A stretch of DNA of 64,000 nucleotides from NCBI GenBank assembly GCA_003290165.1, contig QNQO01007626.1, forward strand, positions 1-64,000. The letters run 5' to 3'. Each line of letters begins with the position of its first letter. Position 1 is the stretch's first letter. This document shows positions 56,869-63,959 of the stretch, piece by piece. The DNA is from Berberis thunbergii (Eukaryota > Streptophyta > Magnoliopsida > Ranunculales > Berberidaceae). The notes under the pieces were generated by a model. It was given only the letters and a program-made list of their open reading frames with translations. It searched no databases and had not been told where the DNA came from. The translations under genes were made by a program, and so were the position numbers.

Positions 56869-57010
56869 CACTACACCAAAAGACCTGATTAGCTACACAG
56901 GGGTGGCCAGCTACACAGGGGTGGCCACGGTTCTAAGCCGTTGGTGTGTTTGCCACGGCTAAAAACCGTGGCTATAGTGACCCACGGCTTAAAACCGTTG
57001 CAAACGTGCA
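56869..57010 (+). repeat. CACTA terminal and subterminal repeats
   Basis: The terminal CACTACACC is followed by short direct and inverted copies of GGCCACGGTT, CCACGGCT and AAAACCGTTG. Such arrays are transposase-binding regions in CACTA elements. Confidence 0.65.
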
Positions 57011-57710
57011 CGTGCGTTGCACGTGAAGGTGTGGAGAATTAGGTCGATTTCAGGCGGGTGAAATTTTGCGAAATTTTTTTTCTTCCCGCGCGTTCCCGCT
57101 GCATCTCCCCCTTTTCAACCCTTTGCATCTAACCCTAAAATTTCAAGGAGAAGGAAAGAGAGAAAGAGAAGGAGAAGGAAAGAGAGAGGGAGAATTCGAG
57201 CTTCTAATTGATTCATCATTTTTGGTTCTGTTTCTGTTCTGATTTATCATTTTTCAGTAATTTTCACTGATTTGAACTTGATTATTGCAAATCTAGTAGA
57301 AGAAGGTGTTGATTTGTTCGTGTTCATAACAAATCCAGTTGTTGTTTTGATCTTTCGCTCACCATTTGTTTGTTAAAATTGAGTTTCTCTCTTCTCGCCA
57401 GGTATTCCTTCCATCTTATACTATTTCTTTTTCTTTGCTATGGCTACTTCGATCTAATAGTATTAGTTTATCTCTTTGAATTCAAATGTAGAATAATTTT
57501 CATTCAAATAGATCAATTTCCATTGAAACTCGGATTATTTCATATTCAAATAGCTCAAGTGTGCAAGATTCAAACTTTGATTTTCCGATAAGAATGAGGT
57601 ATACCCTTCCTGATTACAGAGTGTTTATTTGGTTAACTGTTGCTTTACAAACTAAAGTCCTTTATGGTATTTGATTTTCCAATTAATGTATATCGGTACA
57701 ACTCATGCAG

Positions 57711-57782
57711 GATATTCAGCCTAGGGAAAATGCAAATGATTTCACTGGGACCCCTTATCTTCCTGTCTATGTGATGCTTCCT
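57711..57782 (+). pseudogene. Captured beta-amylase exon
   Basis: A CATGCAG acceptor and a GTAAGT donor bound 72 bp encoding DIQPRENANDFTGTPYLPVY followed by VMLP. The GTPYxPVYVMLP segment opens the catalytic domain of plant beta-amylases, most like the BZR1-type BAM7/BAM8 group. The next beta-amylase exon (LGVIN...) is not found, so only one exon is present. Confidence 0.7.
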
Positions 57783-58049
57783 GTAAGTAGCTTTTTTAAT
57801 TTCTTAGTTGATTCTTCAATGAAGTGTACTGAAATCTATGTCTAAAAAGAAGGCGTACCTCCTCTCTTTTATTAGTTATTACAAGTAAGGGCCATAACTT
57901 TGAGATTTTTTTTTTGGTTGTTAAATTTTTGGCTAGGGAGAATTATTGTCTTGAGAATTAGGATTTCTCTATAGGGGCTCCAGAATCATATTCACAGGTT
58001 CCATATTTTGAAAAAAAAAAAAAAGTCTATTTCTTGCTTTGGTGTATTA

Positions 58050-58345
58050 CACATGGTAAAATTTGTACAATTGACAACCTTTCCAAGAGAAGGTTTTTGA
58101 TCCCCAGTCGCTGTGTTTTGCACTTTTCCCATGTGTAATCAATTTGACATCTATCCTTTGAATGTTGTGTTGTTACTAAGGTTTGGTCGAAGCTGGTTAG
58201 TGGGTTTGGTATCCCTTTGCTCGATTGCTTTCCATCATTGGCTAAAGTGGAGTAATAGGTTTTGTCTTCTAAAGGGCAAGGCATGGTGTGGGAGAGGTTG
58301 TCCTCTATGATGCTTTGGGTACTATTAGGAAGGAATGGCATGCCA
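58050..58345 (+). pseudogene. LINE reverse-transcriptase zinc-binding fragment
   Basis: In successive plus-strand frames: NLSKRRF-like start, LIPSRCVLC, then KVWSKLVSGFGIPLLDCFPS and LAKWSNRFCLLKGKA. This is the C-terminal zf-RVT region of plant non-LTR retrotransposons. The His and Cys of the usual HLFxxC are not recognisable. It lies in the intron after the beta-amylase exon. Confidence 0.6.
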
Positions 58346-61494: not shown

Positions 61495-61735
61495 CAAGCG
61501 CAGAGGCTGCTGCGTTGCTGATGTTGCTGCTGCGTTGCTGTTGTTGTTGCTGTTGCGAGTTGCTGCTGCGCTGCGTTGCTGATGCTGTTGCGAGTTGCTG
61601 ATGCTGTTCTGCGCTGCGTTGCTGTTGCTGATGTTGCTGCTGCGTTGCTGATGCTGTTGCGAGTTGCTGCTGCTGCTGCTGCTACGCTGAGTTGCTGCTG
61701 ATGCTGGTTTTGCTGCTGCTGGGACGCTTGCTGTC
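61495..61735. repeat. CTG/TTG/GCG triplet-rich tract
   Basis: About 240 bp of GCTGCTGCGTTGCTGATGTT-type triplets, period 3, with an imperfect longer unit. Any frame through it is open: Leu/Cys/Ala-rich on the plus strand, Gln/Ser/Asn-rich on the minus strand (61129-61875). I regard those frames as composition artefacts. Confidence 0.8.
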
Positions 61736-62217
61736 TGTCGCAGCGTTGGTTGGAGCATTTGTTTTGGGCAATCCGGGGTACACTCGGGTCGCAGAAACGC
61801 GCGTGTGCTGCGTGTTCTATGGCTGAGAGCACTGCATGGAGCCATTTTTTGTGTTTCAGGTTTGTTATTATTCAAATTAGGCAGTTATAACATGTTGTTT
61901 GTTGTCTTTGGTCATTTTCCTCGGATTTTCATAATATTTATGGTGATGCTTCGTGCTTTTAGGTATTTTGTGTCGGTTCTTGCAATAATTTAACTCAATT
62001 ATCTGTCTATATCTCTTGAAATCTATACTTGTCATTCTGGAAAAACATGGATGCTTCATTTCAAGCTTTTTAGTCTCATCACAGCTCAGACTGTTGCAGT
62101 CATCAAACATCCCAAATCTGGAATAAAATGCATGTGAGCTTGTGTATGGAAATTGCTTTATAAATTTGTTTCTTCATATTTTTGGCTGTCTTACATTGTT
62201 TAATTGCTTCATTTCAG

Positions 62218-62259
62218 GAGCTTTACCGAAGCAATCTCTTATCATCCTACAAGGACATG
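62218..62259 (+). other. Exon-like segment (14 codons)
   Basis: A CATTTCAG acceptor and a GTACGT donor enclose ELYRSNLLSSYKDM. Family not recognised. Confidence 0.4.
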
Positions 62260-62925
62260 GTACGTGTATTTGACATCCTAATGACAAAAACACCTTATTA
62301 GTGATCTTGAGATGTTACCATACTGCAACTTGACACATTGGATTAAAATAATCGAAAACACTACCACACTCGAGAAGATTGTATAAACATCTAACAGATC
62401 TGCGTTCTAGGCAGAGATGCATTCCTGTTTCCTGGTAAGAAACCCCCACATGTAAGTGTTGTTTTAGAGCATGAAACATGTGAAGCAGGTCAAACCCAAA
62501 TTTCTCCGGACCAGTGTGTTAGCAAATCTGTATGAGTTTAACCTCCTGACTAGAAGAACATCTCTGGCATTTAACCTCAGTGTCTAGACATCGATATGGA
62601 CTGTCTGACGCATTCTCTTCATAAATTGATTCAAAAATCCAAAGAGCTCCAGCAGGTATATCACCAGGATGACCTATACTAATTATCCTTTAAATTTTGC
62701 ATGTGAATACTTTAATTCTGTCTAAATAGTAGATATCAACTTTTATCTGGTTTTCTCTGTTGGTTACAAATTTATCTTATCTGGCGAGTTGTTTACATAG
62801 TTAATGCCGATAAATATTACATGCATGGAGCTGCTACTAGGTAACGGTTTTGTGAATCCTTTTATGTTTTTTTAATATATATATTATTATTTTATTTTTT
62901 TCTCTTATGGAAATGTGTTTTGCAG

Positions 62926-63959
62926 CTCTGAAGTAAGTGTATATGCATATGCTGCAGCTCAAGTCAAGAAAGCTATGGAGGTAACTCTTGGTATTTATAT
63001 AACATGTGTAGCTGACTTGAAACTTTAGCATACACCGTGCTTATTATGTTTAATCTCTATAGGTCACACATTACCTTGGAGGAGAAAACTGTTTTTTAGC
63101 AGCTACAGATGGTTTTAGAAAAATGGTTGGACGGGTATTGCTTTGTGTTATAATCAAATTTAGTGGTTGGAAATCATATCAAAAACATTTTTCAAATTAT
63201 TTCCTAGGTTGTTGTTAGCATATTTCACAGCTTTTTGATCTCATCCTTTTAGTTTTGTACTAGAAATACTGTGTATGTCCTACTTATCTGTGTTAGTCCT
63301 CCCTTGTATATTCTTACTATGTGAGACATATGCCAAATTGACCTTGTAAATGCTTATTAACTAAAATGTTTAAAATTTTTATTTTTTTCTTTTGAAGGCA
63401 AGTTTTCTTCAAGCTGCTGTGGCCTATAAGAAAAAGATTGGATTCAATGGTAATCTTTTGTTTGAGTTGTGACTTTCTTAGCACATACACCCACACATGG
63501 ACTCTTAAGGTATATCTCCATTCATGGGATGGAACATTGACTTTTCTGTCATTTTTATTTTCATCCCCATTACTCCATTTGCATTTTATTCTTTTTAAAA
63601 TGCAATTGTACATTTACTTTTCCTACAGAAATATAACAAAAAATGGAAAGTCGTGGTACACGTCATTTTTGTTGGTTGCTTCAGATTTATGTTTAGATGG
63701 TTACTTTTGATACAAAACTTCTATTTAACATTTCCCTTGACTATCTGACAATCTTAAACGTTATTTCAGGGACTTTGCTGATTGAACCCAAGCCTCGAGA
63801 ACCTACTAAGCACCAGTATGCATTATGCCACTTAGACTCAATTCATTACACAGTCTGCTGATGTTCTACTGATTATAACATCATTAATAATGCTATTTCA
63901 GGTACGATTGGGATGCTGCAACAACTACTGCATTCCTACAGAAATATGGTCTTGTGGGT
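62926..63959 (+). pseudogene. Xylose isomerase internal exons (five), continuing beyond the window
   Basis: Exons 62926-62980, 63063-63134, 63398-63449, 63770-63815 and 63902-63959 all have GT-AG borders and join in frame. The peptide shows YAYAAAQVKKAMEVTHYLGG, FLQAAVAYKKKIGFNGTLL, IEPKPREPTKHQYDWDAATT and FLQKYGLVG. This is the centre of plant xylose isomerase (D-xylose to D-xylulose), including the Glu of the metal-binding IEPKP. The segment after YLGGEN should read YVFWGGREGYxxLLNTD but is ENCFLAATDGFRKMVGR, so an active-site Trp/Gly region is altered. The N-terminal exons are not found upstream, where the E3 ligase and filler lie, so this is a partial copy rather than the complete gene. 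Confidence 0.8.

What the first reader, a model, noticed from the sequence alone, without database searches (positions are those of the whole stretch)
56869..63959. CACTA-type element carrying a chimera of beta-amylase, E3 ligase and xylose isomerase exons
Downstream of a CACTA-like end with subterminal repeats lie exon-sized pieces of three functionally unrelated host genes, all on the plus strand, each with usable splice sites, separated by filler. The first E3-ligase exon joins the second in frame, and the xylose isomerase exons join in frame. A leader-like region precedes them. This is the layout of transposon gene capture (Pack-TYPE / transduplication in CACTA elements), with the possibility of a spliced chimeric transcript. 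The right end of the element is outside the window or lost.
Basis: partly seen in the sequence, partly recalled or inferred. Interest (0 to 1): 0.85.

Follow-up and report, generated by a model that had tools for sequence, protein, structure and literature searches.

The report
High-copy CACTA transposon carrying gene pieces
A complete 9.2-kb plant jumping gene of the CACTA type has picked up pieces of several ordinary plant genes, and the same patchwork has been copied to many places in the genome; this is a striking example of a known way in which transposons shuffle genes.

Summary
Past the window edge lies the inverted end GGTGTAGTG (66072-66080) followed by CGT, matching the left CGT: a complete 9,212-bp CACTA element with 13-bp TIR and 3-bp TSD. 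All 14 copies read at both ends have matching 3-bp TSDs. The cargo is genomic DNA, introns kept, of beta-amylase, a DWNN-type E3 ligase and xylose isomerase; likely donors were found for all three (substitutions 8.8%, 1.1%, 1.2%). A saposin-type 3' end lies beyond the window, donor not found. The patchwork is amplified: an E3 marker has 143 genome matches, at least three in genes; 18 copies differ by 0.76% on average. The left end has 1,733 matches; one of eight read carries complex I exons instead. A coding chimera is not supported: the beta-amylase/E3 splice chain stops in 20 of 20 copies, the exon with the first RING cysteines is missing, one xylose isomerase exon is cut here, and exons vary at least as much as introns. 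Known kind (Pack-CACTA), unusually high copy; no RNA data.

The parts
56866..56868 (.). Left target-site duplication CGT (the right copy is at contig 66081-66083, outside the window)
56869..64000 (+). Window part of the CACTA element; the whole element is contig C7592:56869-66080 (9,212 bp), right end GGTGTAGTG at 66072-66080
   Evidence: 31 of 40 scored places end exactly at the equivalent of 66080
56869..56881 (+). Left terminal inverted repeat CACTACACCAAAA (13 bp, perfect)
56882..57201 (+). Subterminal repeats and purine-rich leader, shared with other family members: the element's own 5' end
57627..59739 (+). Captured beta-amylase genomic segment (one exon plus most of the following intron)
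   Evidence: 8.8% substitutions (173 of 1965) to C1051:46539-48960, with a gap between the two aligned blocks
57711..57782 (+). Beta-amylase exon, phase 0; its AG and its GT each kept in 19 of 20 copies
59737..60383 (+). Captured E3 ligase (DWNN/PQT3-type) genomic segment; two middle exons of the gene are missing at about 59997-60004
   Evidence: 1.07% substitutions (7 of 655) to C2635
59867..59935 (+). E3 exon with the first half of a zinc knuckle
   Evidence: (PF13696 positions 1-13, 19.5 bits, below the 27-bit cut-off)
60150..60405 (+). E3 exon that in the gene follows the exon with the first RING cysteines; homology to the donor ends at 60383, the GT at 60406 comes from other sequence
61506..61721 (+). 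GCT-rich repeat filler; a similar stretch lies in the fumarase-carrying locus C8726
62575..64000 (+). Captured xylose isomerase genomic segment (continues to contig 64129), with internal deletions relative to the paralogue C10396
63063..63134 (+). Xylose isomerase exon, cut at about 63090 by a deletion that two other copies read here and the donor lack; the C371 haplotype shares it

Best explanation
A non-autonomous CACTA transposon of the Pack-CACTA kind. Shown: TIRs, TSD, subterminal repeats, many dispersed copies with the same ends, and cargo made of genomic pieces (introns kept) of three host genes with likely donors located, plus a saposin-type piece whose donor was not found. Inferred: host repair or aberrant transposition between neighbouring copies joined the pieces at short microhomologies; a transposase made by one of the many tnp2-type CACTA elements in the genome moves it; it expanded in a recent burst. 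The captured exons are passengers: a transcript could be spliced into chimeric RNA, but no coding function is indicated.
For: Both ends and TSD CGT/CGT. Matching 3-bp TSDs in 14 of 14 copies read at both ends, at 13 different sites (window; left flanks, right flanks, compared by eye; copies were chosen because both ends were mapped). Same end, different flanks: 31 of 40 scored places end exactly at 66080 and 5 more within 3 bases; 19 distinct left flanks. Donors with introns: C1051, C2635, C455. Beta-amylase/E3 junction resolved with a short overlap. Marker count 143, reversed-pattern control 0. Pairwise divergence mean 0.76% over 18 copies. At least 150 tnp2 transposase hits. No Pfam match (E 0.01) in 10 long plus-strand and 10 long minus-strand ORFs of the element.
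Against: No transposase-bearing member with this left end was seen: none of the 100 listed left ends lies within 20 kb of the 150 scored tnp2 hits (compared by eye; 1,733 ends and 7,809 candidates exist, so both lists are partial). No saposin donor in the 4 loci read of 21 hits. The beta-amylase source is distant (8.8%), so the true donor may be another paralogue. 57202-57626 and 60384-62574 are of unknown origin. Three of 29 different-or-repeated loci read lack a left end within 400 bp (L034, L035, L044 of 32).
Confidence: 0.95

Rival explanations
1. The captured exons form a functional chimeric gene: the element's leader drives a transcript that splices through the exons and ends in the saposin 3' exon with its stop codon, and the product is kept by selection.
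For: All recognised pieces of this element are in sense orientation behind a leader shared in the family; of five splice sites checked in 20 copies, three copies show one altered site each; the two E3 exons join in frame and stay open in 18 of 20 copies; a saposin terminal exon with stop lies near the end.
Against: Beta-amylase to E3 splicing meets a stop in 20 of 20 copies; the E3 piece lacks the exons with the rest of the zinc knuckle and the first RING cysteines; this copy's xylose isomerase exon is cut; variable sites are 7.8-9.7% in the three exons against 3.7-6.1% in three non-exon stretches.
Confidence: 0.07
2. Segmental duplication or assembly duplication, not transposition, made the copies.
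For: Some pairs share flanks (C7592 and C371, 99% over 3.3 kb, and others) and look like two haplotypes of one locus.
Against: 19 distinct left flanks, 13 sites with their own matching TSD and common ends at 66080.
Confidence: 0.02
3. Capture by another mechanism: a nested Helitron, Mutator element or retrogene brought the gene pieces in and the CACTA element only surrounds them.
For: Filler of unknown origin lies between pieces (60384-62574).
Against: Introns are kept, so retroposition is excluded for three genes; the beta-amylase/E3 junction is direct. Ends of other element types were not searched for.
Confidence: 0.04

Closest known systems
Tgm-Express1 of soybean (PMC1947982; abstract and first part of Results read)
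   Same: CACTA element with five unrelated host gene fragments, introns kept; spliced into chimeric RNAs inside the wp gene
   Different: 5.7 kb, described there in one flower-colour gene; here 9.2 kb, four recognised pieces (a fifth doubtful), amplified to many sites; no transcript evidence here
Pack-CACTA elements of Arabidopsis, rice and maize (PMC8903248; passages read)
   Same: Non-autonomous CACTA ends around pieces of one or several genes; maize Pack-CACTAs contain the most distinct loci
   Different: The passages say most Pack-CACTAs are low copy in rice and maize; here one chimera has a marker count of 143
CACTA gene capture on wheat chromosome 3B, families Vincent and TAT (PMC4290129; passages read)
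   Same: One CACTA family accounts for many captures; the same captured gene is present in several copies
   Different: The repeated cargo reported there is in three and seven copies on that chromosome; most wheat captures tested were under purifying selection, of which the simple site counts here show no sign

Membership tests
CACTA (En/Spm) superfamily | Terminal inverted repeats beginning CACTA | tested here: met
   13-bp perfect TIR CACTACACCAAAA
CACTA (En/Spm) superfamily | 3-bp target-site duplication | tested here: met
   14 of 14 copies read at both ends; copies chosen because both ends were mapped; C882 and C270 have one changed TIR base each
CACTA (En/Spm) superfamily | Subterminal repeats at both ends | tested here: met
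CACTA (En/Spm) superfamily | Moved by a CACTA transposase | not testable with these tools
   tnp2-type transposases are abundant but none was linked to these ends
Pack-CACTA | No transposase inside | tested here: met
   no Pfam family (E 0.01) in 20 long ORFs of both strands; shorter ORFs were not scanned; one search lists no hit in C7592 but scored only 150 of 7809 candidates
Pack-CACTA | Contains host gene sequence with a donor elsewhere in the genome | tested here: met
   C1051, C2635, C455; not met for the saposin piece in the 4 loci read
Pack-CACTA | Mobile as a unit with its cargo | tested here: met
   same cargo at many sites with their own TSDs
Expressed chimeric gene | Spliced transcripts across captured exons | not tested
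   no RNA data available
Expressed chimeric gene | Open frame through exons of different genes | tested here: not met
   beta-amylase to E3 chain stops in 20 of 20 copies; other exon combinations were not tested
Expressed chimeric gene | Purifying selection on captured exons | tested here: not met
   beta-amylase and E3 exon sites at least as variable as non-exon stretches in 19 rows; site counts, not dN/dS; xylose isomerase and saposin exons not tested

The most novel reading that the evidence does not exclude
The family is a large mobile gene-shuffling platform: a family with 1,733 left-end matches (6 of 8 further ends read share one leader) places different host genes in sense orientation behind that leader (beta-amylase chimera, complex I 75-kDa subunit, perhaps CREG), and swaps 3' modules (the saposin right half is also found with fumarase-type exons), so that one promoter-leader module generates many chimeric transcription units in one genome, amplified far beyond what is usual for Pack-CACTAs.
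Probability: 0.2. Interest if true: 0.7.

Novelty: new member of a known kind. Interest (0 to 1): 0.5.

Why it matters
It gives a recent, high-copy case of gene capture with likely donors identified and a junction visible at the base, so capture order, junction mechanism and fate of captured exons can be tested in one family. It also warns that gene annotation of this genome may count transposon-borne fragments of beta-amylase, E3 ligase, xylose isomerase and saposin genes as genes.

Tried and rejected
Protein homologue search with the saposin reading: nothing at E 0.001, so no species name or annotated product came from it. E3 donors: C930 and C3510 match at exons only and the stretch read of C227 not at all; C2635 and C206 are far closer. 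C10396 as xylose isomerase donor: a paralogue at 10.7% substitutions; C455 is at 1.2%. Ten xylose-isomerase-like loci were read around one exon: C455 and C4406 match at 94% along their length, C1460 in two pieces (81% and 87%), the other seven only over 242-317 bp. Six beta-amylase loci were read first; only C1051 shared the intron; of four more, read at positions estimated from C1051, C9681 matched and three did not. Saposin donor: 4 of 21 hit loci read, none matched. Transposase linkage: none in two partial lists. Papers: the held library has no paper with both 'CACTA transposon' and 'xylose isomerase', which says nothing about papers not held.

Full report
What was checked. The window is the first 64,000 bases of contig C7592 of an unnamed 2.24-Gb genome, so the sequence past the window could be read. 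The left end CACTACACC at 56869, preceded by CGT, is the only exact match in the window; with one mismatch the motif is not enriched (13 against 7.9 expected). The predicted partner GGTGTAGTG is at 66072-66080, followed by CGT. The TIR is 13 bp and perfect, and subterminal repeats lie at both ends. The element is 9,212 bp.

It is mobile. A search with bases 56850-57200 gives 80 matches, with 40 of 1,685 candidates scored. A search with the 3.1-kb stretch 57600-60700 finds 40 places at 97-100%, the window and C371 included, 40 of 798 candidates scored; the 3' part is likewise repeated (40 scored each). In one search, 31 of 40 places end exactly at the base equivalent to 66080, five within 3 bases, one at +5, one 28 bases short; only the window and C371, its likely second haplotype, run on to the end of the query. 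In the 32 loci (some places are held twice) 29 have a recognisable CACTA end, with 19 distinct 8-base left flanks at these copies (a 20th flank belongs to a second end inside L022). Twelve copies with both ends mapped were read at their edges, plus C2133 and the window copy: 14 of 14 have matching 3-bp TSDs by eye, at 13 different sites (C506 and C8157 share a site); C882 and C270 have one changed base in the right TIR.

Cargo. (1) Beta-amylase, 57627-59739: C1051:46539-48960 aligns in two blocks through the exon and the following intron at 8.8% substitutions. The exon 57711-57782 has the same boundaries in C1051. (2) E3 ligase, 59737-60383: DWNN-bearing genes C2635 and C206 align with introns at 1.07% and 2.03%. 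In the donor the two captured exons are separated by two others, which hold the second half of the zinc knuckle (PF13696 positions 13-21, 17.5 bits) and the first part of a RING-like finger (PF13923, 21 bits); both scores are below the curated cut-offs. They are gone in the element, with a short overlap at the deletion. (3) Xylose isomerase, 62575-64129: matches solved xylose isomerases and genomic loci; the best of those read are C455, which also has hits to other parts of the enzyme profile, and C4406. Against C455 the window copy differs by 1.17% (7 of 596) and copy C2133 by 2.12% (18 of 849). The window copy and C371 lack 0.26-0.29 kb inside one exon that the two other copies read there (C2133, C9276) keep. 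(4) A saposin-type 3' end, contig 64605-64799, 65021-65080, 65169-65312 with a stop codon (SapB_2, 45 bits on the joined exons); its donor was not found. (5) Possibly a CREG-like scrap near 64260-64310: Pfam 15.2 bits under a 27-bit cut-off and PDB E 1.6, so only a hint.

Order and age. Between 18 copies (window and C371 left out; three presumed haplotype pairs included) the mean difference in the core is 0.76%; other pairs lie between about 0.48 and 1.01%. Presumed haplotype pairs differ by 0.05-0.45%. E3 and xylose isomerase were therefore taken up not long before the burst; beta-amylase looks older or came from an unseen paralogue (inference). With plant rates recalled from memory (about 0.7-1.3e-8 per site and year) the burst is a few hundred thousand years old.

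Copy number. A 40-base E3 exon marker with up to 3 mismatches has 143 matches and none for the reversed control. Of the 100 listed, three (C206, C2635, C2825) lie about 1.6 kb from a DWNN exon and are genes rather than copies. Haplotypes are counted apart, so distinct insertions are fewer, and a marker match is not a complete element. The 40-base left end has 1,733 matches, control 0.

The wider family. Eight further left ends were read for about 1.4 kb (taken from the top of the list by contig order, not at random). Six of eight share the leader to about 57194-57201. One (L061) is the same chimera. One (L062) carries complex I 75-kDa exons (Fer2_4 56.8 bits, NADH-G_4Fe-4S_3 56.2 bits). L060 and L065 are alike and look CREG-like from memory only; Pfam gave nothing. 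L063 and L064 are alike and unnamed; L059 and L066 are unnamed. A locus sharing the right half from 64476 on (C8726) carries fumarase-type exons (Lyase_1, 107 bits on joined exons); its left end was not read. So the right half occurs with different cargo. The minus strands of these loci were not scanned.

Coding potential. Over the window copy and 19 others the beta-amylase to E3 splice chain stops in 20 of 20; the E3 pair alone is open in 18 of 20; of five splice sites checked, three copies have one altered site each (the E3 end used there runs 2 bases past the last base before the GT at 60406). Variable sites are 7 of 72, 6 of 69 and 20 of 258 in the three exons against 114 of 2084, 8 of 214 and 48 of 783 elsewhere (19 rows). 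There is no sign of protein constraint in these exons.

Reading. This is a Pack-CACTA element. Known relatives: Tgm-Express1 (PMC1947982), Pack-CACTAs in rice, maize and Arabidopsis (PMC8903248), wheat CACTA captures (PMC4290129), reviewed in PMC13317346 (passages read). PMC8903248 states that most Pack-CACTAs in rice and maize are low copy; the copy number here is the unusual feature. How the pieces were joined was not observed; the tandem-insertion and aberrant-excision model in PMC13317346 fits but was not tested.

Noticed in passing
C8726:158300-160600 (L051): A locus with the same saposin right half carries fumarase-type lyase exons instead of xylose isomerase.
   Followed up: partly
C6:2115900-2117315 (L062): Complex I 75-kDa subunit exons sit directly behind the shared CACTA leader.
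   Followed up: partly
C78, C5663, C16, C293, C2021 and others: A different xylose isomerase exon (profile positions 79-111) is repeated at more than ten loci, perhaps another amplified capture.
   Followed up: no
window 40035-41988 and 49633-51577; 30228-32051 and 37099-38908: Long direct repeats (89-94%) that look like LTR pairs or nested retrotransposons.
   Followed up: no
window 56453-56835 and 13584-13978: An AACCGAACCG-rich repeat (88% alike) lies just left of the CACTA insertion and again near the window start.
   Followed up: no
window 56891-56927: An 18-bp tandem duplication in the left end is present in this copy but not in its likely haplotype partner C371.
   Followed up: no
C686:269195-288994, C8759:143481-163236: Copies about 19.8 kb long, probably with a nested insertion; C8759 has matching TSDs TAT.
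   Followed up: no
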